From contig NZ_LT827010.1 of the NCBI RefSeq assembly GCF_900119315.1, positions 4,683,001 through 4,747,000 on the forward strand: a DNA stretch of 64,000 nucleotides, given 5' to 3'. The stretch's first letter is position 1; the number at the start of each line of letters is the position of its first letter. Shown piece by piece: positions 4,142 to 22,342 of the stretch. The notes beneath the pieces are model-generated. The model was not told the DNA's origin and searched no databases. It worked only from the letters and a program-made list of their open reading frames with translations. This DNA comes from Actinoplanes sp. SE50/110 (lineage in GTDB: Bacteria > Actinomycetota > Actinomycetes > Mycobacteriales > Micromonosporaceae). Both the position numbers and the translations under genes were made by a program.

Positions 4142-4789
4142 ATGACCACTGCCCCTACCGGCATCCCGGCCGGCATCGAGCATCCGCACAACCGGATCCG
4201 CGTCGGCTACGCCCGGGTGTCGACTCGGGCCCAGGATCATCAAGCGCAGCTGGATGCCCTCACCGGCGCGCACTGTCGCGAGGTGGTGGTGGAAACGGCA
4301 AGCACCCGAGGCGATCGACCGAAACTACGCGCCACCCTCGCCCGGCTGCAGCCGGGCGACACCCTGGTGATCTACAAGCCGGACCGAGTAGCCCGGTCGA
4401 TGAAGGAGCTGCTGATCTTCGTCGAGGACCAACTGCACGCCCGCGGCATCGTGCTGGAGATCCTGACAGGGGTCTGCGCCGGCGTCCACCGCCCCGACGG
4501 AGCCACCATCGCCGACCGGCTGCTGTTCGCCGAACTGGAACGCGAACTGATCCGCGAACGAACCCTCGACGGGCTACGCGCCGCCGCAGCCGCCGGGCGC
4601 CGCGGTGGCCGACCGGTCGCCGTCACCGCCGACCAACTCGACATCGCCCGCGCCCGGCTGTCCCGCGGCGAATCCGTGACCGCGATCGCCGCGCACCTGG
4701 GCGTCGGCCGGTCAACGCTGTACCGAGCACTGGACCTAGCAGCCGACGCCCCTAACGGACAGACGCGAACTGAAACAGACACCCATTAA
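4142..4789 (+). CDS. Serine resolvase/invertase
   Basis: 215 residues from the ATG after the res-like cluster; the frame stays open upstream but that part is not protein-like. The N-terminal catalytic domain shows RVGYARVSTRAQD with the nucleophilic serine, the D-rich LQPGDTLVIYKPDRVARS segment holding the arginine pair and the conserved ELERELIRERT helix; the C-terminus is a Hin-like helix-turn-helix (VTAIAAHLGVGRSTLYRAL). These enzymes resolve cointegrates or invert DNA by a two-strand serine cut. There is no complete transposase alongside, so it is either an orphan or a remainder of the Tn3 element whose TnpA tail opens the window, with the two signalling genes lying between (inference). 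Confidence 0.9.
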   Translation: MTTAPTGIPAGIEHPHNRIRVGYARVSTRAQDHQAQLDALTGAHCREVVVETASTRGDRPKLRATLARLQPGDTLVIYKPDRVARSMKELLIFVEDQLHARGIVLEILTGVCAGVHRPDGATIADRLLFAELERELIRERTLDGLRAAAAAGRRGGRPVAVTADQLDIARARLSRGESVTAIAAHLGVGRSTLYRALDLAADAPNGQTRTETDTH

Positions 4790-11489: not shown

Positions 11490-11641
11490 AAGCTTCTCCC
11501 GGTGCGATGTCGTACCTTCTCTTGCACCGCGGCCCCGCCGCCGGGTTCGCTGGCCTCCATGGCGCCTATTGCGTACGACTCCGGCGACGCCGCTGCTTCG
11601 CCGCGACTGCTGGTCCTGCGATGACCGCGCCGGTGGCGGGG

Positions 11642-11685
11642 GTTGAGGAGCATCGGAGCGAAAACTGGCGCTAACGGTGATCTTG
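11642..11685 (+). repeat. Left terminal inverted repeat of the Tn3-family transposon
   Basis: 44 bases beginning GTTGAGGAGCATCGGAGCG and ending GGTGATCTTG. It pairs with the complement of 22,230-22,273 at 41 of 44 positions. The internal AAAACTGGCGCTAA resembles the inner part of Tn3-type ends. The resolvase gene stop is 35 bases further in. Confidence 0.9.
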
Positions 11686-11719
11686 GAGAGTTCCGCTGCG
11701 GCGTGAAGGTGAGGAGCGG

Positions 11720-12781
11720 CTACTCGATCCGGTCGAGGGGGCGGCCTTGGATCCGGGCGGCCAGTTCGGGGTCGATCGGGTCGAGAACCCGAGCGGGCCG
11801 GGGGCGCACGATCGCCGGGAGGCGGTCGCTGGCTCGCTTTGCGTGCTCAGCGTGTGCCTGCTCGATGGCGTCCGGGTAGCCCTGGGCCTTCTCGTACGCG
11901 GCGATGGCCCGGTAGATGCTGGCCACGCTCGGGTTGCGGCCTTTGCGCTTGCCGGTTGGGATGATCAGGTCGGGCTGGATCCTTTCGACGGTCTCGCCGT
12001 TGGCGCGGCGCCGTAGCACGGTGTGCAGCATGTCGTCGGTGATGACCGGGGGCCGGCCGCCGTGTTTGCCCTGCCGGGCGGCGGCATCGAGGCCTTCGAG
12101 GGTGCCTTCGCGGATGTTGTCGCGTTCGGTCTCGGCCAGGGCGGCGAAGAACGCGAACAGGATCCGGCCGGGCCCGGTCGGGTCGTAGATGCCCGGCAGC
12201 GGTCCGGCGAGCATCTCCAGGACCAGGCCGTGCGCGACGAGGTGGTCGGCGAGGGCGGTGAGTTCGGCGGCGTCGCGGCCGAGGCGCTTCATCTCGTTGA
12301 CGGTGAGGATGACCCGGCAGTGCGGGGCGTGGGCCTTGATCTCGCGGGCGAGGGCGAGGGCCGCCTCGAACTGTGGCCGGATGCGCATCCGGGTGGAGAT
12401 CTTCTCGGAAAAGATCTTGTCGCGGGGGATGCCGTGCGCGGCGAGCGCGTCCAGCTGTGACTGGAGCTCCTGGGTCATGGTGCTGCACCGGGCGTACCCG
12501 ATCCGGATGTCGGCGCTCGGGAGGTCGGCGGGTATCAGCGTCAGCGGCGGGGTGCCGGGCCGCCACGGCTGGCCCGGGCCGCGGCCGGCCGGGGTGAGCA
12601 CGCGCAGGGCCTTGCTCAGCCGGCCGACCCTGGTGAACCGGCCGGTGTGGTACGAGGTTGCGACCACGCCGGAGCGCGACCGGCACGGCGAGCCGGGCTG
12701 CGCCAGACAGCGTGGGCACGGGTGCCGCTCGATCGCGGCGGCGTCACGCGAGTCGGATTCGCGGTTCTCGGGTTCGGCCAT
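11720..12781 (-). CDS. tnpR: Zinc-finger serine resolvase of the transposon
   Basis: 353 residues from the ATG at 12,781; a further ATG at 12,856 would place the start inside the res half-sites. N-terminus carries CPRCLAQPGSPCRSRSG followed by YHTGRF, a CxxC...C...H small zinc-finger common in actinobacterial DNA-binding proteins. Then comes the resolvase catalytic domain: RIGYARCSTMTQELQ with the serine, VNEMKRLGRD with arginines, AALAETERDNIREGTLEGL long helix, and a C-terminal HTH (PSVASIYRAIAAYEKA). It is longer than Tn3 TnpR (about 185) because of both extensions. Expected job: resolving cointegrates at the res site directly upstream. It is the last gene in the direction of chrA but 236 bases separate them. 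Confidence 0.9.
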   Translation of the reverse strand: MAEPENRESDSRDAAAIERHPCPRCLAQPGSPCRSRSGVVATSYHTGRFTRVGRLSKALRVLTPAGRGPGQPWRPGTPPLTLIPADLPSADIRIGYARCSTMTQELQSQLDALAAHGIPRDKIFSEKISTRMRIRPQFEAALALAREIKAHAPHCRVILTVNEMKRLGRDAAELTALADHLVAHGLVLEMLAGPLPGIYDPTGPGRILFAFFAALAETERDNIREGTLEGLDAAARQGKHGGRPPVITDDMLHTVLRRRANGETVERIQPDLIIPTGKRKGRNPSVASIYRAIAAYEKAQGYPDAIEQAHAEHAKRASDRLPAIVRPRPARVLDPIDPELAARIQGRPLDRIE

Positions 12782-12799
12782 GCCCGGAATGCTCGCACA

Positions 12800-12925
12800 A
12801 ACATTTCTCAGAATCGCGGACCGACGCGCTTGCGTGAGAACGCGTTGTGAGAACAAATCCGACCCGAAGTGATGCCGGTGGTGTCGGTCGGCGGACGGTT
12901 CTCACAATGGACCGTTTGTGAGAAC
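12800..12925 (-). promoter_or_regulatory. res site of the transposon
   Basis: Subsite at 12,898-12,925 is 28 bp with perfect 10-bp arms, GTTCTCACAA / TTGTGAGAAC. Further half-sites of the same core (GTGAGAAC at about 12,833 and 12,847; TTTCTCAGAA near 12,804) are spread to 12,800, giving the usual multi-subsite layout upstream of the resolvase gene. The subsite distant from the gene is the best dyad and the probable crossover site (inference from Tn3 layout). Confidence 0.75.
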
Positions 12926-13017
12926 GCCTACAGGTGCCGCGGGTCGGGTGCCGGGAAAGGCACAAGCGAGAGTGATCTTTAACCGGGCCGGGACGTCCGC
13001 CCGGGGGCGCCGGTTTG

Positions 13018-14442
<1,425 letters not shown>

Positions 14443-14489
14443 CAGCGCCTTTCTGGAGCTCGGGCGGGCATGCGGGTGACGGCTGATGC

Positions 14490-14921
14490 TCAGGCAGGTG
14501 GGCGGTTCAGCAGCAGGGCGCGGCGGTGGTACTCGTACAGGCCGTCGAAGACCGGCCCGGTCAGGGCGAGGATCTGCTCGTCGTCGCAGATCATCGACAA
14601 GCCGCGCAGGATCACGTCGAGGCCGGGGGCTTCGGGGGCGTCGTAGCGTTCGTCGTCGAGGTCGGCTTCGTGCACGATCTCGGCGAGTTTCCACAGGATC
14701 GGGTCGGTGAGTTCGTAGCGGCGCACGATCGTTTCGAAGCTGCAGTCGTCGCCGTGGTGGCCCAGATCCACGCCGCGCATGTCGAACGGGGTCGCATCGG
14801 CCGGGACCGCCGTCATGTCGGTGACGAACACGAACTCGGCGTCTGGGTCGATGTGGCGGCGGATCAGCCAGGCGCATGCGGCCCGGTCGATGTGTACGCC
14901 GGCACGGGTGGCCCACTTCAT
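14490..14921 (-). CDS. chrB: ChrB C-terminal-domain protein (split ChrB, second half)
   Basis: 143 residues. Matches the C-terminal domain of ChrB: WATRAGVHIDRAACAWLIRR, FDMRGVDLGHHGDDCSFET and the tail LSMICDDEQILALTGPVFDGLY. Proteobacterial ChrB proteins join this part to an N-terminal domain in one chain of about 310 residues and act as chromate-responsive regulator or as reductase-like accessory protein. Here the two halves are separate genes overlapping by ATGA, hence translationally coupled. Cys and His (C-A-W-L, GHHGDDC) are candidates for metal or chromate sensing. Role in transport accessory or regulation cannot be told apart from sequence. Confidence 0.88.
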   Translation of the reverse strand: MKWATRAGVHIDRAACAWLIRRHIDPDAEFVFVTDMTAVPADATPFDMRGVDLGHHGDDCSFETIVRRYELTDPILWKLAEIVHEADLDDERYDAPEAPGLDVILRGLSMICDDEQILALTGPVFDGLYEYHRRALLLNRPPA

Positions 14922-15409
14922 GCGTCCTCCTCCACCGGGACGTCGGTTGCGGCGCCGGTGAGGGCCTGGATCGCGGCGCGGGCCGCGTCGCGCTCGGCCG
15001 GCGGGAAGAAGTCGCGGCGGTCGATCCGGCGTAGCTCAGCCCGCAGCCGGCGCACGACGCGGGCCCGCTCGGTGTCCGGCAACCCGGCAGCGGCTTGCGC
15101 TTCGAGTCGCACGGCCTCGTACTCGCCGGCACGGGCGTCGCGCATCGACTCGGCGATGGCGCGTTCCTGGGCGGCTGTGGTCGGAGCGGCCAGCCACACC
15201 GTCGCCGATCCGCCGGCCTGCAGGATCTCGTCGGCGATCCAGTCGAGCGCCTCCCGGGTGCGCGCGTCGGCCGGCAACCCCACCAGGCCATCGCCGAGGC
15301 GGGCGACGCCCAGGCGTTCCAGCTTGCGCCACACCGCGATGCGCGGCGCGGACGGCTCCCGCGGAATCCGGTAGGACAGCAACACCCACTGCCCGGCTGG
15401 TCGGCTCAT
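14918..15409 (-). CDS. ChrB N-terminal-domain protein (split ChrB, first half)
   Basis: 163 residues. WVLLSYRIPREPSAPRIAVW, KLERLGVARLGDGLVGLP and the AGGSATVWL strand match the N-terminal ChrB domain, which in the joined protein resembles PaaX-like regulators. The second half is helical and Arg/Glu-rich (LRAELRRIDRRDFFPP). It overlaps the phosphatase-like gene upstream by four bases and chrB-C downstream by four bases, so all three are made together. If any local protein binds the GTAACC-NN-GGTTAC operators, this or the ArsR protein is the first candidate (inference). Confidence 0.82.
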   Translation of the reverse strand: MSRPAGQWVLLSYRIPREPSAPRIAVWRKLERLGVARLGDGLVGLPADARTREALDWIADEILQAGGSATVWLAAPTTAAQERAIAESMRDARAGEYEAVRLEAQAAAGLPDTERARVVRRLRAELRRIDRRDFFPPAERDAARAAIQALTGAATDVPVEEDA

Positions 15410-15786
15410 GACGGCTGCCCGGCAAGAGCAGCGGCGAGGGCCTGCACCCGGTCGCGGATCTCGGTGCACATCTGCGGGGTGAACTGCTGCTGCTCCAGGT
15501 CCCACCGGTGGTCGGCGGGGAACTCGCGGGAGCAGTCGATGGCGACCAGCAGGTCCCGCTCCGGGACTGCCGACAGGGGCCGGGGCATCGCCTCGTCCAG
15601 CAACGGCAGCACCGGCGTGTTCTGCAGCAGCCGTGCGGCGTGCACGCTGACCTGCTGCTGAGGTTCCATGCCGGCCGAGGTCGCCGTCCAGCCGGGCAGG
15701 CCCAGCCCGTTGAACCAGGCCGCCGCGATCCGGCTCTTGCCCGCCCCGTGGGGACACACGAACACCACCGTGCGCTGTGCCGTCAC
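15406..15786 (-). CDS. Low-molecular-weight phosphatase/arsenate-reductase-like protein
   Basis: 126 residues, first gene of the chromate operon. TVVFVCPHGAGKSRIAAAWF at the N-terminus sits where LMW tyrosine phosphatases and ArsC-type reductases have the C(X)5R loop, followed by the ATSAGMEP strand typical of that fold and a late acidic loop with DLEQQQF. The loop here is C-X7-R (or lacks the Arg at the standard place), so classical phosphatase chemistry is unlikely; the conserved Cys could still serve redox or oxyanion binding. The chromate context suggests an oxyanion-handling role (inference). The palindrome at 15,812 is 26 bases upstream. Confidence 0.7.
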   Translation of the reverse strand: MTAQRTVVFVCPHGAGKSRIAAAWFNGLGLPGWTATSAGMEPQQQVSVHAARLLQNTPVLPLLDEAMPRPLSAVPERDLLVAIDCSREFPADHRWDLEQQQFTPQMCTEIRDRVQALAAALAGQPS

Positions 15787-15811
15787 CGCATACCACCCTC
15801 ATCCCGATTGA

Positions 15812-15827
15812 TGTAACCATGGTTACA
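15812..15827. promoter_or_regulatory. Operator palindrome of the chromate operon
   Basis: TGTAACCATGGTTACA is a perfect 16-bp palindrome 25 bases upstream of the phosphatase-like start codon. A sister copy lies at 16,926-16,941. The pair of matching dyads at two promoters of the same cargo points to one repressor, probably encoded in the transposon. Confidence 0.75.
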
Positions 15828-15936
15828 GTAGATGAGTCGTCGGGAAACGGCACTACCCGGCCGGCACACGGACAGGCGGACCAGCAAGCCGGACAGCGAC
15901 GCCCAGGCTGACGAGGCGGCCCTCGTGCCGAGGTGC

Positions 15937-16899
15937 TTACGGCGTGGTGGCGGTGGCGTTGACCGCGGCGCGCAGCGTCCGGGCGAGGGCCTGCGCGTCC
16001 GCGTGGCCCCAAAAATGCAGGTAGAACATGCGCGGCTCGTCGTGCAGGGCGTGGTTGTGCAACTCCACCACCGCTACGCCGCCGCCGCGCAGGGCGGTGA
16101 TCACCGGCTGGACCTCGTCGGCGCGCATGGCGATGTCACCGTTGACCGCCGCCTGGCCGTCGCCGGCGGGCTGGAAGCCGAGCCCGGTGGTGACGCCCAT
16201 GCCCGGGGTGAGGGTCCGGCCGTGGTCGGTGATCGTTTCCGCGCGGGCGATCGTGTATTTGTAGACCCCGCCGTCCCAGGCGCCGGTCCGGCCCAGGGCC
16301 TGGTCGAGGGCGGCGGTGTCCAGCTCGCCAGGGGTGGTGTTCGCCGGTGCGGGCGGTGGAGTGCCAGTGTGGTCGAGGGCCGCGCGGACACCGCGGGCGG
16401 CGCTCACCGGGTCGCCGACGGCGTGGATGTGGGTCCACCACAGCTGCGGCTCGTGCGCGAGCAGGTGTTTGTGGATGCCGGTCTGCGCCAGCCCGGCAGC
16501 CTGCAGCGCGTCGGTGACGGCGGGCATTTCCTGCTCGGTGACCACCAGGTCGCCCATCAGCAGGACCTGTCCGTCGCGGTAGCGGGTGAAAGCCGCGTAG
16601 GACCCCAGCGACAACGCCGGCTTGATCGTCACGGCGCCGCTGACCACGGTCAGGTCCCGACGGGCGAACCCGACCCGGTAGACCCGGCCGTCGTCGAGCA
16701 GCTTGCCCTCTCGCCCCAGCGCCTGCGCGACCGGCGCCCAGTCCGCCGCGGCGGTCACCACCGGCGCGAGGCGGCCATGGCAGTCCCCGGCATGGTCATC
16801 GCCGGCGGCCCGCGCCGGTTGCGCCGCGGCCGCGACGGTCAATGCCGCGGCCGGGACTGTCCAGCCGGCCTGCAGGAGTCGCCTGCGTGTCGTGTCCAT
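15937..16899 (-). CDS. Tat-exported DUF1259 protein
   Basis: 320 residues with a twin-arginine signal peptide: MDTTRRRLLQAGWTVPAAAL, hydrophobic stretch and an AQPARA cleavage region. Mature part shows two repeated halves (WAPVAQALGREGKLLDDGRV ... and LDQALGRTGAWDGGVYKYTI ...), each ending in a conserved H-N-H / H-I-H segment (HIHAVGDP, ELHNHALHDEPRMFYLHFWG). This is the DUF1259 (LppY/LpqO) fold, biochemical function unknown. The GTAACC operator copy lies just upstream, so it is probably co-induced with the chromate operon. Exported, so it may act on the oxyanion or damage outside the membrane (inference). Confidence 0.85.
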   Translation of the reverse strand: MDTTRRRLLQAGWTVPAAALTVAAAAQPARAAGDDHAGDCHGRLAPVVTAAADWAPVAQALGREGKLLDDGRVYRVGFARRDLTVVSGAVTIKPALSLGSYAAFTRYRDGQVLLMGDLVVTEQEMPAVTDALQAAGLAQTGIHKHLLAHEPQLWWTHIHAVGDPVSAARGVRAALDHTGTPPPAPANTTPGELDTAALDQALGRTGAWDGGVYKYTIARAETITDHGRTLTPGMGVTTGLGFQPAGDGQAAVNGDIAMRADEVQPVITALRGGGVAVVELHNHALHDEPRMFYLHFWGHADAQALARTLRAAVNATATTP

Positions 16900-16925
16900 C
16901 GCGCGTCCCCGTCCACCCTCGGTAA

Positions 16926-16941
16926 TGTAACCGTGGTTACG
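16926..16941. promoter_or_regulatory. Second copy of the chromate-locus operator
   Basis: GTAACCGTGGTTAC (16,927-16,940) has the same half-sites as the 15,812 palindrome with a GT centre. It lies between the divergent DUF1259 gene and the small membrane-protein gene and could control both. Confidence 0.7.
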
Positions 16942-16974
16942 GTATCGCTGGCGGGAACGAGTTCGGGAGGAATC

Positions 16975-17343
16975 ATGCTCAGTTGGGGCACGATGATCTA
17001 CGGCGCGGCGCTGTCCGCGCTGCTCGCCGCCGTTCTGGTCGCCGCCGCCGTGCGGCCGCGTCGCCCGGCCGTGATCGCCACCGCCGCGATCGGCGCCCTG
17101 CTCGGGCCGCTGGCGTGGAACGCGATCCTGCGCGCCGCCCACGGCGCCCAGTTCTTCACCGACGCGCCCGTCGCGGTCCTGCCCGCCTCGTGGCAGGACA
17201 CCGGCAGCGGCGTGTTCACCATCGCGGTCACCGCGCTCGCGCTCGGCCTCGGGCCCCTCGCCGCGGGAACCGGCCGCCGGCTCGCCGCCACCGCCGCACT
17301 CGCCGGCCTGGCAGCCTTCCTCATCGACGTCTACCTGTACTGA
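16975..17343 (+). CDS. Small integral membrane protein of the transposon cargo
   Basis: 122 residues, ATG four bases after GGGAGG. Four predicted membrane helices (about 8-28, 34-52, 72-92, 99-118) with Arg-rich short loops and no domain I can name. It diverges from the DUF1259 gene across the operator at 16,926, so it is likely switched on with the chromate genes. Function unknown; an accessory membrane role is inference only. Confidence 0.65.
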   Translation: MLSWGTMIYGAALSALLAAVLVAAAVRPRRPAVIATAAIGALLGPLAWNAILRAAHGAQFFTDAPVAVLPASWQDTGSGVFTIAVTALALGLGPLAAGTGRRLAATAALAGLAAFLIDVYLY

Positions 17344-17441
17344 GACGCACTGCGATCGTGCGCAGCAACGCGAGGCAGGGGAGCCGATCGGGGGCGGACA
17401 CCGCCTCCCTGCGGTTCCGGCTGGGTATTCGCCGAGGCGGG

Positions 17442-17822
17442 TCAGCGTTGCGGGGGCAGATGATGGTCCGGGCTGGCCGACACCCGGTGCTCGGCGGTGT
17501 AGACCGCCTCGGTCACCAGCCGGGCCACATGCTCGTCGGCGATCACGTAGATCACCCGGCGCCCGTCGCGCCGAGCGGCCACCAGGCCGGCCAGTCGCAG
17601 CTTGCTCAAGTGCTGGGACACCGCCGGACGCGCCGCGCCCACCGCTGCCGTCAACGCGGTCACGTCCTGCTCGCCGGCCAGCAGCGCGACCATCAGCCGC
17701 AGCCGCGTCGCGTCCGCAAGCATCCCCAGCGCCAGCGTTGCTGCACCGATGACGTTGTCACTCACAGCGCGTTGTTGCAGGTCACTGGCACTTGCCATGT
17801 TGTCGCGTGCGTGCATGAGCAC
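17442..17822 (-). CDS. ArsR/SmtB-family metal-responsive repressor
   Basis: 126 residues from ATG at 17,822; an ATG at 17,798 would give 118. Winged HTH: LGMLADATRLRLMVALLAGEQDVTALTAAVGAARPAVSQHLSKL, then wing LVAARRDGRRVIYVI. The last helix reads DEHVARLVTEAVYTAEH, keeping D, H and the last H of the four-ligand alpha-5 site of CzrA/NmtR-type sensors; the third ligand is a Thr. It diverges from the cation exporter, so it most likely represses that gene and lets go on binding Zn, Co or Ni (family knowledge plus context). It might also bind the chromate-locus palindromes. Confidence 0.88.
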   Translation of the reverse strand: MLMHARDNMASASDLQQRAVSDNVIGAATLALGMLADATRLRLMVALLAGEQDVTALTAAVGAARPAVSQHLSKLRLAGLVAARRDGRRVIYVIADEHVARLVTEAVYTAEHRVSASPDHHLPPQR

Positions 17823-17875
17823 ATATTATGGCGGTGACAGCACGTAGACCACCCGCGAGCACGAGGACGATTGCG

Positions 17876-19120
17876 ATGGCTGAGCCGGCGCACCGCCACG
17901 AACCGCACGGCGTCGCACCCGAGCACCACGGCCACGGCCACGACCATGGCCATGAGCACCCGCACGGTGAAAGCCACGGACATGATCACGATCACGGAGG
18001 CCACGAGCACGGCCAGGGACTCTGGCATCGCCTCCAGCACATGATCACACCGCACTCGCACGACAGCGCCGACAAGGTCGACTCGGCCATGGAAGCCTCC
18101 CGCGACGGCATGCGCGCCCTGTGGATCTCGCTCGCCGTGCTCGGCGCGACCGCGATCATGCAGGCGCTGATCGTGGTGTTCTCCGGATCGGTCGCCCTGC
18201 TCGGTGACACCCTGCACAACGTCGCCGACGCACTCACCGCCGTCCCGCTGGGCATCGCCTTCATGCTCGGACGCCGGGCCGCCACCCGCGCCTACACCTA
18301 CGGCTTCGGCCGCGCCGAAGACCTCGCCGGCATCGTCATCGTGCTGGTCATCGCCGCCTCGTCGATCACCGCCGCCTGGCTCGCCGTTGACCGGCTGCTG
18401 CACCCGCAACCCATGACGCACCTGCCCTGGGTTCTCGCCGCTGCCGTGATTGGCTTTGCCGGTAACGAGATCGTCGCCCGCTACCGCATCACCGTCGGCC
18501 GCCGGATCGGCTCCGCCGCCCTGGTCGCCGACGGCCTGCACGCGCGCACCGACGGCTTCACCTCCCTCGCGGTCGTCCTCGCCGCGCTCGGCACCTGGGC
18601 GGGCTGGAGCTGGGCCGACCCGGCCGTGGGCCTGGCCATCACCATCGCGATCGCCTTCGTCCTCAAAGACGCCGCCCGCGAGGTCTACCACCGGCTCATG
18701 GACCGCGTCGACCCTGAACTGGTCGACCAGGCCGAGCGGACCTTGCGCGCCATCCCCGGCGTTCACGACGTCTCCGGTCTGCGGCTGCGCTGGATCGGGC
18801 ACCGCATGCACGCCGAAGCCGCCGTCGTCGTCGACGCCAACCTCACCCTGCTCGCCGCACACGAAATCGCCGCCGACGCCGAACACCAACTCACCCACGG
18901 CGTGCCCCGGCTGACCGGCGTCACCGTCCACGTCGACCCCGACAGCCACCCCGGCGGCCAGCACCACACCGACATCTCCCACGACCGCCGCGACCGCATC
19001 ACCGCCAGCGTCGCCACCACCGTTGTGCCAGCCAAGCCGGTCAACAGGGCACTAGCCCTGCTGAGCTCCTCTCCGATCTACTCGTCGTCGCCGGCGTCCG
19101 GGTCGCGCAGCCTGCGGTAG
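17876..19120 (+). CDS. Cation-diffusion-facilitator metal exporter (CzcD/ZitB type)
   Basis: 414 residues from the ATG at 17,876; the in-frame ATG at 17,828 would leave five bases to the arsR start. A His-rich N-terminus of nearly thirty His in sixty residues (HGHGHDHGHEHPHGESHGHD) precedes six membrane helices. Metal-site motifs of CDF helices are seen as LLGDTLHNVADA (helix 2) and LVADGLHARTDG (helix 5), followed by the cytoplasmic C-terminal domain (VHDVSGLRLRWIGHRMHAEAAV). Expected to extrude Zn2+/Co2+/Cd2+ by proton antiport. The last 45 residues look unrelated to the family and overlap the tnpA end by 43 bases, suggesting the original stop was lost when cargo and tnpA were joined. Confidence 0.9.
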   Translation: MAEPAHRHEPHGVAPEHHGHGHDHGHEHPHGESHGHDHDHGGHEHGQGLWHRLQHMITPHSHDSADKVDSAMEASRDGMRALWISLAVLGATAIMQALIVVFSGSVALLGDTLHNVADALTAVPLGIAFMLGRRAATRAYTYGFGRAEDLAGIVIVLVIAASSITAAWLAVDRLLHPQPMTHLPWVLAAAVIGFAGNEIVARYRITVGRRIGSAALVADGLHARTDGFTSLAVVLAALGTWAGWSWADPAVGLAITIAIAFVLKDAAREVYHRLMDRVDPELVDQAERTLRAIPGVHDVSGLRLRWIGHRMHAEAAVVVDANLTLLAAHEIAADAEHQLTHGVPRLTGVTVHVDPDSHPGGQHHTDISHDRRDRITASVATTVVPAKPVNRALALLSSSPIYSSSPASGSRSLR

Positions 19121-22100
19121 GTGCGCCCACCCAAGTCGGGCAGGGTGAAGGTGTAGTGGCCGTGGACGCGGATGTGGTGGCGCACGAACGGCGAGAGCCG
19201 GCCGACGTCGGCGTCCAGGACCGGATAGCCCTGCGCACGCAGCCCGGCCAGGGCGAGGTCCAGGTAGAGGGTGTTCCACAGCGTGATGCAGTTAAGGACC
19301 AGGCCGAGCGCGCCGAGCTGGTCCTCCATGCCGTCGTGGTAGGCACGGTGCAGTTCCCCGCGGCGGCCGTGGAAGACGTGCCGGGCCAGGTCATGGCGTC
19401 CCTCGTTGAGGTTGCGCATGCCCTTGATCTGGCGCCGGTACGGTTCGTCGTCGACGAAGGTCAGCACGTGCAGGGTCTTAAAAATCCGCCCATAGGCCGC
19501 CAGGGCCTCGCCGAGCTGGGTCAGGTTCCCGCCGGCCGACAGCACCCGCAGCACGTCGTAGGCCGACACCTGCCAGGTGTGAATGGATCCGGCGATGCGC
19601 AGCATGTCGGGCCAGTGCCGGCGGATCCGGTCCAGGTCGATGATCCCGCGGGCGGTCGCGTCCAAGGGGCCGTAGTCGGCGCTGCGGTCGATGCGCCACA
19701 GCTTGGCGTCGGGCAGGTCGGCCAGCTGCGGCCGGTAGTCGAAGCCGAGTAGCTGCAGCAGGCCGAAGACGACGTCGGAGTACGAGCCGGTGTCGGTGAT
19801 GATGACCTCGGGGCGGCGGCCGCCGTCGCGCCGGTACAGCAGGTCGATCAGGTGCATCGAGTCGCGCGGCGTACCGGACAACACCCGGCCGGCGGTGCCG
19901 ACGGCCTGGTCGTTGACCATGTTGAGCCAGGTCGCGCCGCGCCGCTGACCGAAGTATTTCGGGTTCGGCCGGGCGTGCACGCTGCGCACCGGAACCACGA
20001 ACCGCATCCCGTCAGCTGCGGCGACCAAGCCGCCGCCCCACGCCCGGGCCATGCCGATGCCGTCCTGGGCGTCGATCAACACGCCGTTCGCGGCGGCGTA
20101 GGTCTCCGGCCGCAGGTAGGTCGCGTCGACGTGGCTGATCCGGCCCCTGGTCAGCGCCGGGATGCCGTCGGAGATGACCGGGCGAACCCGACGTTGAGCG
20201 CGTGCGCCGTCAAGGTCGCGGCGATCGTCACGTGCAGGTCGTCCAGGCGGGTGGCCGACCCGGACAGCGCGGTGAACGCGGCCGCGAAGCCCGGGTACCA
20301 GGCCATCACCTCCAAGATCAGCTCGCCCAGGTCGATGCGCGGCAGCATCGCCTGCACCCGATGGCGCAGGTCGACCAGGCTCGCCGGGTCCGGGATCGCG
20401 GTGACCTTCTGCGCGTGCAGCCGGCCCTCGTCGTCGAGCCGGGCCGCGGTGTCCGCGGACAGCCCGGCCGCGACCGTCCGCCACGCCTCGTCCAGCGTCA
20501 CCGCGTGAGCCTGCAGCAGGTCGTGGGGTTCCTCGGGCAGTTGCAGCGCGTTCAACGCGGGCGCCTTGGCCTGCTGCCAGGCGTCGCCGTCGAGTAGCCG
20601 GGCCCGCGGGTCACCCCAGCGTTCGGAGACCGCGGCGAAGATGTCACGGCGCTTGAGCCGCTGATGGAACTGCTCGAGCACGCAGAACACGTACGCGGCC
20701 TTGTCCACCGTGCCCGGCGGCCGGTCCTTCGGGAACACCAGGCGCTGCCACCAGCCGGACGGCACGACGTCCACCTGGATCCGGCGGGCGTCGAGGAACC
20801 CGGCGGCGACCTTGCGGCCCTGCCGTGCATCCAGCAGCTCCGGCAGGCCGTTGACCGCGTACAGCACCGGCGCGGCGTCCGCGGTGGCGCCGAACTCGAT
20901 GACCTGACACAACATGGGCACGAACCCGCGGATGGTGGCCATCCGCTCCAGCAAATGCGCCCGCCACTCCCCATCCGGATCCGCGTCCGCCGGCGGCAAC
21001 ACCTCAGCGATCCCGGCGACCGCCGCCCGCAGCTCAGCGCGCGACACCTTGCTCTCGATCGCGTCCCACACCTGCTGCAGGCGCACCTGCTCACCCCACT
21101 CGGCCGCCTCCAGCAGCACCGCCACCGCGGCCGCGAGCTTCCCGGCATGCCGCGACACCTTCGGATAGCGGCGCAGCTTCTCCTTTTTCGACTGCCGCTC
21201 GGCCCGGCTCATCAACTCCGTGGTCATCAGCACGTCGAACAACTCCAACGCGTCATCGACCGAGCGCGCCTCCAACGCCCGCACCGTCGCCAGCAAGGTG
21301 GCCAGCTTGCGCGGGTACGGGTGCCGGCGCAGCGTCGGCGCCTTCGCCTCCAACCCGTAGCGGGCCAGCTCCCACACCCGCCGCCACGGCACCATCGCGA
21401 CATCCAGCCCACCCAAGCCGAGCCCGGCGACCTCACCGGCCCGCTGCAACGCCCGCACCATGCCGATACCCGACGTCCTCGTCACCGGCGTCCGTAACCG
21501 CTCCAGCTGCGAGAACCGAGAACCCTCCGGAACGTCGAGCAGACCCTCCAGCAGCCGCGCCTGCTCCGCCGACACCAGCCCCGACAGCCGCTCGTGCAGC
21601 CGATCAGTGGCCTTCCCACGAACCTGCGCCACCAGCCGGGCCAGCGTGCTCACCGCCGGCAGTAGCACCTTGCGCTCGCGCAGCCAGCCCACCGCCACGT
21701 CGAACAGCGCCTTCGGCCCGTCCCCACTCGTCCACGCCTGGTCATCGACCCAGCGAATCAGCTCCGGCTCCGCCGCGGCGAAGTCGGTGTACCCGTACTC
21801 CCGGGCGATCTCCCACTGATGCTCGAAACGCGTCTTCTCCCGCCGCAGGTACCCCTTGACCCTGGACGGATCCGCCACGCCGACCTGGCGCGCGACGTAG
21901 TCGACCGCCTCGGTCGGCACTTCGAGGGGATCGGCCAAAAACAAGCCCAGCGCCCGCACGGTCGCCACCTGCAACCCGAACCCGATCCGGTTCTCGTCAC
22001 CGCGGCGCCGGGCCACCAGGTCCCGGTCGAAGTCGTCCAGGAAGAACAGGCCCTCCAGCTCCGTCGGCGTCAGCCTGGCCGGAAACCGGCCATAGGCGGA

Positions 22101-22133
22101 GGCCTGCTCATCAGTGAGGAACTCAACCGGCAC
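19078..22133 (-). pseudogene. tnpA: Tn3-family transposase with one frameshift
   Basis: Two overlapping frames give one TnpA of about 985 residues, the family length. Frame one (from 22,133) runs from PVEFLTDEQASAYGRFP through the DUF4158 and central helical domains to AHALNVGF and stops at 20,151; frame two resumes with PVISDGIPALTRGRISHVD and carries the DDE core: HVDATYL, VIITDTGSYSDVVF, RNLNEGRHDLAR, ending LPDLGGRTYRRLRD. The break is a one-base loss at about 20,184-20,190. Either the gene is dead, or it is expressed by frameshifting, or the read is wrong. Its start lies 97 bases from the right inverted repeat, and it reads toward the cargo. Confidence 0.9.
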
Positions 22134-22229
22134 AGCCCAAAACGCTAGAAGAGATCGAACATGATCGAAGCCGGGCTAACGGTCAGCCGATCACGACGAC
22201 CGACGTACCCCAATCGTGTCCGCCCGGAT

Positions 22230-22273
22230 CAAGATCACCCTTAGCGCCAGTTCTCGTTCCGATGCTCCTCAAC
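22230..22273 (-). repeat. Right terminal inverted repeat of the Tn3-family transposon
   Basis: Read on the minus strand it begins GTTGAGGAGCATCGGAACG and ends GGTGATCTTG, differing from the left end at three positions. It ends 69 bases before the GTG of the neighbouring SDR gene, so insertion probably displaced that gene's promoter. Confidence 0.9.
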
Positions 22274-22342
22274 GGCCGTGGCTGGCTCGGTGGTGCGACC
22301 GGCTGTTCCGCACCGTCGCTTCCGGCAGTGCGCGGTGAGCCG

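What the first reader, a model, noticed from the sequence alone, without database searches (positions are those of the whole stretch)
11642..22273. Complete Tn3-family chromate-resistance transposon with 44-bp ends
Seen: 44-bp inverted repeats (41/44), resolvase, res and tnpA frame a cargo of split chrB, chrA, DUF1259, small membrane protein, arsR and a CDF exporter. Chromate cargo on an actinobacterial Tn3 unit with zinc-finger resolvase is unusual and may be undescribed. The cargo orients away from the tnpA strand at the CDF end. No 5-bp target duplication is visible.
Basis: partly seen in the sequence, partly recalled or inferred. Interest (0 to 1): 0.75.

Follow-up and report, generated by a model that had tools for sequence, protein, structure and literature searches.

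The report
Chromate-resistance Tn3 transposon in Actinoplanes
A soil actinobacterium carries a jumping gene of a well-known kind whose cargo looks like a set of chromate- and metal-export genes; it is a real, properly bounded insertion, but its own transposase gene reads as broken in this copy.

Summary
The finding is real and mostly read correctly, with three corrections. The inverted repeats are 48 bp (43 of 48 matching) and a perfect 5-bp target duplication, GTGGC, flanks them. The same GGGG/GGCC end register with exact 5-bp duplications occurs in 4 of 8 related elements scored. A sister element in Actinoplanes sp. NBRC 103695 has matching duplications and empty sites in other Actinoplanes. 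(2) "Complete" is too strong: tnpA is split over two frames, one nucleotide shorter than relatives near 20181-20183. (3) A gene was missed, a low-molecular-weight-phosphatase-like ORF at 15406-15786. One end is TIR-tnpA, the other res-tnpR-TIR with a zinc-finger resolvase of a kind frequent on actinobacterial plasmids. The cargo (split chrB, chrA, DUF1259/chrL-like) resembles the known actinobacterial chromate determinant and usually occurs in this genus without this Tn3. The intact res-chrA junction was seen in 1 of 354 family genomes, the window's own; one other Actinoplanes holds a decayed tnpA-chr sibling. Novelty: new member of a known kind.

The parts
11633..11637 (.). left copy of the 5-bp target-site duplication, GTGGC
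11638..11685 (+). left terminal inverted repeat, 48 bp (GGGG start)
   Evidence: 43 of 48 identical to the right repeat; similar TIR beside tnpR in L137
11720..12784 (-). tnpR, serine resolvase with N-terminal zinc-finger domain. Start uncertain: 12784 (Met25 of the open frame, which reaches 12856); some relatives align from residue 24-25, others from residue 2
   Evidence: PF00239 E 2e-25, PF24623 E 5.7e-12; best relatives 78-93%
12795..12926 (-). probable res site: GTTCTCACAA-8-TTGTGAGAAC (12898-12925, proposed crossover site I) plus TTCTCA/TGAGAA half-sites at 12805-12854
   Evidence: homology of the tnpR-res module reaches 12923-12926 and no further in 4 of 12 matching loci; the proposed site I is absent from the sister contig L137
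13018..14442 (-). chrA, chromate efflux transporter
   Evidence: PF02417 E 1.4e-65, TIGR00937 above its cut-off; start chosen
14490..14921 (-). chrB C-terminal-domain gene
   Evidence: PF09828 E 3.3e-50
14918..15409 (-). chrB N-terminal-domain gene
   Evidence: PF20229 E 1.4e-10
   Evidence: PF01451 E 0.0074, below Pfam cut-off; copies beside chr genes in L015, L026, L030
15937..16899 (-). DUF1259 (LppY/LpqO, chrL-like) protein
   Evidence: PF07485 E 7.7e-85; start chosen; ChrL of Arthrobacter FB24 is of the LppY/LpqO family (PMC2751784, passages); that DUF1259 is the LppY/LpqO family is recalled
16983..17343 (+). small membrane-protein-like ORF
   Evidence: open frame, no family match
17442..17822 (-). 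arsR/smtB-type metalloregulator
   Evidence: NF033788 above cut-off
17828..19120 (+). CDF cation exporter; its last 43 nt overlap the tnpA 3' end
   Evidence: TIGR01297 above cut-off, PF01545, PF16916
19078..20160 (-). tnpA, C-terminal part (DDE domain), second frame
   Evidence: PF01526 E 1.4e-112; no relative shown matches below 19078
20151..22133 (-). tnpA, N-terminal part, first frame (frame break near 20181-20183)
   Evidence: NF033527 and PF13700
22230..22277 (-). right terminal inverted repeat, 48 bp (GGCC start)
22278..22282 (.). right copy of the 5-bp target-site duplication, GTGGC

Best explanation
A Tn3-family (replicative, paste-and-copy) transposon of 10,640 bp inserted between a mycothiol-maleylpyruvate-isomerase-like gene and a short-chain dehydrogenase gene in an Actinoplanes chromosome. 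One end is TIR-tnpA, the other is res-tnpR-TIR, and cargo sits between res and the tnpA 3' end (12927-19077). Mechanism, inferred from the family: TnpA joins donor and target into a cointegrate, duplicating 5 bp of target, and TnpR recombines the two copies at res site I. The cargo is inferred to pump out chromate (ChrA), to sense or handle it (split ChrB, ChrL) and to export divalent cations under an ArsR-type repressor (CDF). Shown: ends, duplication, gene content, a sister's insertion with empty sites elsewhere. Inferred: past transposition of this copy, the res assignment, resistance. This copy is probably not autonomous now, because tnpA is frame-split.
For: 48-bp TIRs with a perfect 5-bp TSD at the register shared with relatives. 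TSDs in 4 of 8 relatives scored. In the sister element the two TIR-bearing contig ends carry the same GTCTC flank, and their outer flanks are found together in 18 of 19 other Actinoplanes loci examined, 5 with an alignment running through the junction. Backbone homology stops at the tnpA stop (19078) and at the outer edge of the res array (12926, 4 loci), leaving the cargo as a foreign middle. The res-chrA junction occurs only in this genome in the listed matches from 354. Cargo families.
Against: No empty site for this very insertion was found: 9 Actinoplanes loci with the right-hand gene lack the left-hand gene within 1.5 kb, and the three genomes that hold both genes hold them on different contigs (the left-gene loci themselves were not read). 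Four of 8 relatives show no TSD. In the sister contig L137 the accessory half-sites of res are present but the proposed site I is not, so res may be disrupted there or wrongly delimited here. tnpA is frame-split. No phenotype was tested.
Confidence: 0.92

Rival explanations
1. A fixed chromosomal chromate island that happens to lie between inverted repeats, or that was later invaded by Tn3 pieces on each side.
For: In 15 of 16 other Actinoplanes loci read (18.8-20 kb each, of 20 other genomes with a chrB_C match) the chrB_N-chrB_C-chrA core has no match to this element's tnpA, tnpR or TIR nearby; other kinds of Tn3 genes were not looked for there.
Against: TIR pair with exact TSD at the family register; backbone at both ends with sharp boundaries; G046 carries tnpA remnants joined to the same chr gene order at another place.
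Confidence: 0.05
2. The tnpA frame split is a sequencing error or a programmed frameshift, so the element is fully autonomous.
For: The difference is a single base in a C-rich stretch, a common error type; the rest of both parts matches the transposase family.
Against: Relatives read through this place in one frame (L003 and L004, annotated as one gene and aligned; L061; G224, frame of 1020 aa), so no conserved frameshift signal; the assembly is a single contig.
Confidence: 0.3
3. The element is a remnant whose cargo is dead weight: the chr genes are not expressed or give no resistance.
For: tnpA already broken; many fragmentary copies of this backbone in the genus.
Against: The cargo frames are open, and chrA, chrB_C, chrB_N, DUF1259, arsR and CDF have family matches above cut-off, whereas the sibling in G046 has a broken LMWP-like gene and a truncated chrL.
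Confidence: 0.12

Closest known systems
Tn3-family transposons (seven TnpA subgroups named in PMC7157771, passages seen)
   Same: TnpA with DDE_Tnp_Tn3 domain (the only solved-structure matches are Tn4430 TnpA, best E 2.4e-52), long TIRs starting GGGG/GGCC, 5-bp TSD, serine resolvase plus a probable res.
   Different: tnpR and tnpA at opposite ends with cargo between res and the tnpA 3' end; resolvase has an N-terminal zinc finger; subgroup not assigned here.
Chromate determinant of Arthrobacter sp. FB24 (PMC2751784, passages seen)
   Same: Split chrB, chrA and an LppY/LpqO (chrL) gene.
   Different: On a plasmid; no Tn3 unit mentioned in the passages seen. The window has no WD40 match (chrK) among the ORFs scanned and has an LMW-phosphatase-like ORF, small membrane-like ORF, ArsR and CDF instead.
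TnOtChr of Ochrobactrum tritici and Tn5045 (proteobacterial chromate transposons)
   Same: Chromate genes as cargo of a mobile element; in TnOtChr the chr promoter lies within tnpR (PMC3817168, abstract and passages). That Tn5045 is a Tn3-family chromate transposon is recalled; one search gave only a listing.
   Different: TnOtChr has chrB, chrA, chrC, chrF, the last two being superoxide dismutases (PMC4779226, start of abstract in a listing); unsplit ChrB and Tn3-family backbone are recalled.
Sister element in Actinoplanes sp. NBRC 103695 (L061 + L137)
   Same: tnpA 93% (C part), tnpR 86%, same TIR type, same layout, TSD GTCTC.
   Different: No chr genes of this kind matched on the two contig ends held; a quinone-oxidoreductase-like and a TetR-like ORF lie beside tnpA (names recalled from the sequence); its tnpA frame is broken elsewhere and the proposed res site I is missing from the contig held.

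Membership tests
Tn3 family | TnpA with Tn3 DDE domain | tested here: met
   PF01526 E 1.4e-112 on the C part; NF033527 on the N part, 391.9 bits, below its whole-protein cut-off of 500 because the protein is split
Tn3 family | Long terminal inverted repeats | tested here: met
   48 bp, 43 of 48
Tn3 family | 5-bp target-site duplication | tested here: met
   GTGGC on both sides; about 0.2% by chance at a fixed register
Tn3 family | Site-specific resolvase | tested here: met
   PF00239 E 2e-25
Tn3 family | res site with three subsites | tested here: inconclusive
   repeat array 12805-12925 with homology ending at its outer edge in 4 of 12 matching loci; subsite limits not proven and site I missing in L137
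Tn3 family | Intact tnpA reading frame (autonomy) | tested here: not met
   frame split near 20181-20183; bears on autonomy, not on family membership
Tn3 family | Replicative transposition via cointegrates | not testable with these tools
   needs a mating-out or trap assay
Actinobacterial chromate determinant | ChrA (CHR family) transporter | tested here: met
   PF02417, TIGR00937
Actinobacterial chromate determinant | ChrB split into N- and C-terminal genes | tested here: met
   PF20229 and PF09828 on separate ORFs
Actinobacterial chromate determinant | ChrL (LppY/LpqO, DUF1259) | tested here: met
   PF07485 E 7.7e-85; PMC2751784 for ChrL
Actinobacterial chromate determinant | ChrK (WD40-repeat protein in FB24) | tested here: not met
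   no WD40 match among the ten ORFs scanned against Pfam; shorter or other ORFs were not scanned
Actinobacterial chromate determinant | ChrJ | not tested
   its protein family was not in the passages seen
Actinobacterial chromate determinant | Confers chromate tolerance | not testable with these tools
   needs MIC or knock-out

The most novel reading that the evidence does not exclude
Two linked readings. First, actinobacterial Tn3 units are modular: a TIR-tnpR-res end is traded between elements with unrelated transposases, probably at res site I, and metal cargo is captured between res and the tnpA stop, this element being a chromate-carrying product. Second, the LMW-phosphatase-like gene with a C-x5-K loop is an undescribed accessory gene of actinobacterial chromate operons.
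Probability: 0.35. Interest if true: 0.5.

Novelty: new member of a known kind. Interest (0 to 1): 0.36.

Why it matters
It shows a route by which a usually chromosomal actinobacterial chromate operon can become mobile in a soil genus, with exact ends and a target duplication that can be used to find further copies. The corrected end register (GGGG/GGCC, 4 bp further out) makes target duplications visible in relatives. The chr-linked phosphatase-like gene is a testable candidate accessory gene.

Tried and rejected
Empty site for this insertion: 67 genus genomes were searched with the right-hand gene (10 matched, own included) and with the left-hand gene (26 matched, own included). The 9 right-gene loci of other genomes were read and lack the left gene within 1.5 kb; G038, G055 and G066 have both genes, on different contigs; the left-gene loci were not read. 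So no empty site was available. Programmed frameshift in tnpA: rejected because relatives read straight through there. 'Zinc-finger resolvase is unusual': rejected. TIRs in the Pseudonocardia plasmid relatives L003/L004: none within 15 of 38 mismatches. Assigning the TnpA subgroup: pWW0 was fetched as a yardstick, no Tn3 transposase was annotated in the 40 kb fetched, dropped. ChrA tree: the window groups with G046, G045 and G001 (support 92/93 for the four rows), but only 1 of 20 inner branches is strongly supported and 15 are open; row L134 (27% identity, surely a wrong match) was left in and spoils the root, so nothing rests on it. The DNA search of the res-chrA junction gave many weak matches (309 of 354 genomes at E <= 0.001); only matches spanning both sides were counted, and the listing is cut off at weak E-values.
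Full report
Where it is. The window lies in a single-contig 9,240,166-bp genome. The genus is Actinoplanes: same-genus genomes G014 and G005 have contigs with the lengths of Actinoplanes palleronii NBRC 14916 sequence057 (223,303) and Actinoplanes sp. NBRC 103695 sequence078 (7,758). The species is not established; the size resembles that of Actinoplanes sp. SE50/110 (recalled, not tested).

Ends. In related elements the ends begin GGGG or GGCC before a TTGAGG-like core. Applying that register moves both ends 4 bp outward, to 11638 and 22277 (48-bp repeats, 43 of 48 matching). Both sides are then flanked by the identical 5-mer GTGGC. At the window's base composition a 5-mer match at one fixed register is expected in about 0.2% of cases; over 61 registers scanned, two match (0 and +16), and only register 0 fits the family ends.

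Are such duplications general here? Of 17 tnpA-bearing loci examined for paired ends, 8 gave pairs that I judged usable and were scored over 29 registers each. Four of these 8 (L063, L070, L071, L076) have an exact 5-bp duplication, with ends starting GGGG or GGCC; 4 (L072, L075, L082, L069) have none at any register scanned. A further case is split over two contigs in Actinoplanes sp. NBRC 103695: the TIR beside tnpA (L061) and the TIR beside tnpR (L137) are both flanked by GTCTC. Their outer flanks (a nitrilase-like gene and a clpX-like gene, names recalled from sequence) are found together in 18 of 19 other Actinoplanes loci examined (L157 lacks the second flank), and in 5 of these (L148, L152, L156, L161, L164) an alignment runs through the joined site. 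These 19 are the loci made by the tool out of 64 matching genomes other than G005. So insertion of this backbone is shown in a sister.

Backbone and cargo. At the right end homology runs from the TIR into tnpA and none of the 11 non-self matches shown extends below the tnpA stop, 19078. At the left end it runs from the TIR through tnpR and res. Of 14 loci compared, 12 matched the tnpR start region; in 4 (L138, L141, L143, L145) the match reaches 12923-12926 and no further, in the other 8 it stops sooner. That limit is the outer edge of an inverted repeat GTTCTCACAA-8-TTGTGAGAAC, the likely crossover site I (role inferred). Against this: in the sister contig L137 the match stops at 12866, and its upstream sequence holds 3 of the window's 5 half-sites but not the proposed site I; res there may be disrupted, or my limits may be wrong. 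The chrA side of the junction begins to match other genomes near 13017. Cargo is therefore about 12927-19077. The order TIR-tnpA-cargo-res-tnpR-TIR fits the sister, whose tnpA-side cargo is different.

tnpA is not one frame. The N part (20151-22133) and the DDE part (in 19078-20484) are in different frames. Against two Pseudonocardia copies the window is one base shorter near 20181-20183. L061 reads through this place although its own frame is broken near residue 255, and G224 has an open frame of 1020 aa. So this copy, as sequenced, is probably non-autonomous; a sequencing error is not excluded.

Distribution of the backbone. The tnpA N part matches in 79 of 354 family genomes (own included) at E <= 0.001, many matches being fragments or distant. 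The resolvase matches in 33 of 354 (own included) at E <= 1e-20. Of the 5000 best plasmid records (capped list), 66 carry a relative at 60% identity or more. The same kind of resolvase sits beside unrelated Tn3 transposases: L138 and L139 (tnpR 93% and 79%; tnpA 27-30%) and L131 (tnpA about 25%), where a 53-bp inverted repeat pair brackets tnpA and resolvase; that L131 element starts GGCCC and is flanked by GAGTC on both sides (read by eye). The resolvase module thus appears with different transposase lineages. Recombination at res site I is a published explanation for mosaic Tn3 elements (PMC7157771, passages).

Cargo. ChrA, ChrB C and ChrB N are clear family members. Split chrB, chrA and an LppY/LpqO protein (ChrL) belong to the chromate determinant of Arthrobacter FB24, whose accessory genes chrJ, chrK and chrL lower chromate resistance when deleted (PMC2751784, passages). 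ChrB_C matches occur in 21 of 60 genus genomes searched, own included, some only as fragments. I read 16 of the 20 others first: chrB_N, chrB_C and chrA follow in this order in 16 of 16, and pieces of this element's tnpA lie near in only 1 of 16, L015; other kinds of Tn3 genes were not looked for. In L015 (G046), fragments of tnpA are joined to a chrL fragment, followed by the LMWP-like gene (frame broken), chrB_N, chrB_C and chrA in the window's order, without TIR or tnpR alongside. It sits at another place, since no window flank gene tested matched there. I read this as a decayed sibling of the tnpA-chr composite. Two further genomes read later (G045, G030) and two others (G001, G023) hold whole or partial chr genes without a match to this element's tnpA or tnpR in the 18-20 kb read; in G023 a short CDF-like match lies nearby. 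The intact res-chrA junction was seen only in the window's genome in the listed matches from 354. The CDF and ArsR genes suggest an additional divalent-metal function (inference).

LMW-phosphatase-like ORF. 15406-15786 scores below Pfam's cut-off for LMWPc (16.9 against 23.2 bits). Its loop reads C-x5-K in 4 of 4 copies seen, where the classic loop has arginine (recalled). Ten of 354 family genomes (own included) have a match at E <= 1e-20, and in 7 of these 10 it lies within 3 kb of a chrA match (G000, G025, G028, G046, G075, G322, G323). In G041 and G072 it is on another contig than chrA, and G340 has no chrA match in the part listed. Of 16 Actinoplanes chr loci, 3 show it (L015, L026, L030), so it is a minority companion. 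No description of such a chromate-linked gene was seen in one paper search (16 papers, 8 listed).

Literature. Searches of the held open-access library: chromate resistance, transposon, Tn3 family and chrA together, 5 papers, none with an actinobacterial host in the title; Actinoplanes with chromate and transposon, none; Tn3 family transposon with Streptomyces and chromate, none; Actinoplanes with Tn3 and resolvase, one, on genome engineering by its listing; broader mixes listed 12 of 174 and 12 of 63 papers without such an element in titles or abstract starts. A proteobacterial chromate element, TnOtChr, is known (PMC3817168, abstract and passages); Tn5045 is recalled (listing only). The kind is thus known; this actinobacterial member was not found in print, with subscription journals and TnCentral unsearched.

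Verdict. New member of a known kind, moderate to low interest.

Noticed in passing
window 15406-15786 (-): LMW-phosphatase-like ORF with C-x5-K loop, within 3 kb of chrA in 7 of 10 family genomes with a strong match; candidate new chromate accessory gene.
   Followed up: partly
L078 (G000:C1:4651295-4651662), about 32 kb before the window: Decayed fragments of a second, related tnpA (73-78% protein identity) in the same genome.
   Followed up: partly
window 4154-4699 (+): Another resolvase-like match, 42% to residues 105-297 of tnpR (G000:C1:4687154-4687699).
   Followed up: no
L138 8406-15215, L139 5593-13851: Similar zinc-finger resolvase (93% and 79%) near a Tn3 transposase only 27-30% identical to this one: resolvase modules appear with different transposase lineages.
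   Followed up: partly
L131 4253-13133 (Streptomyces sp. NBC_01460 plasmid): A different Tn3 element with a zinc-finger resolvase sits inside a tnpA of this window's kind: residues 236-384 and 382-639 of that tnpA lie on its two sides, with GAGTC on both sides read by eye.
   Followed up: partly
L134 8247-13688 (Streptomyces mirabilis P16B-1 plasmid pI): DUF1259 gene, two-component system and split chrB-chrA on a plasmid without annotated Tn3 genes in the 24 kb seen.
   Followed up: no
L137 11600-11974 (G005:C10 end): Upstream of the sister's tnpR the proposed res site I is missing; the sequence to the contig end ends an open frame that looks like an IS transposase tail (impression from sequence).
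   Followed up: no
L069 (G030:C2): tnpA relative (88%) with TIR-like ends only 3.2 kb apart and an incomplete tnpA 3' region: possible defective short derivative.
   Followed up: no
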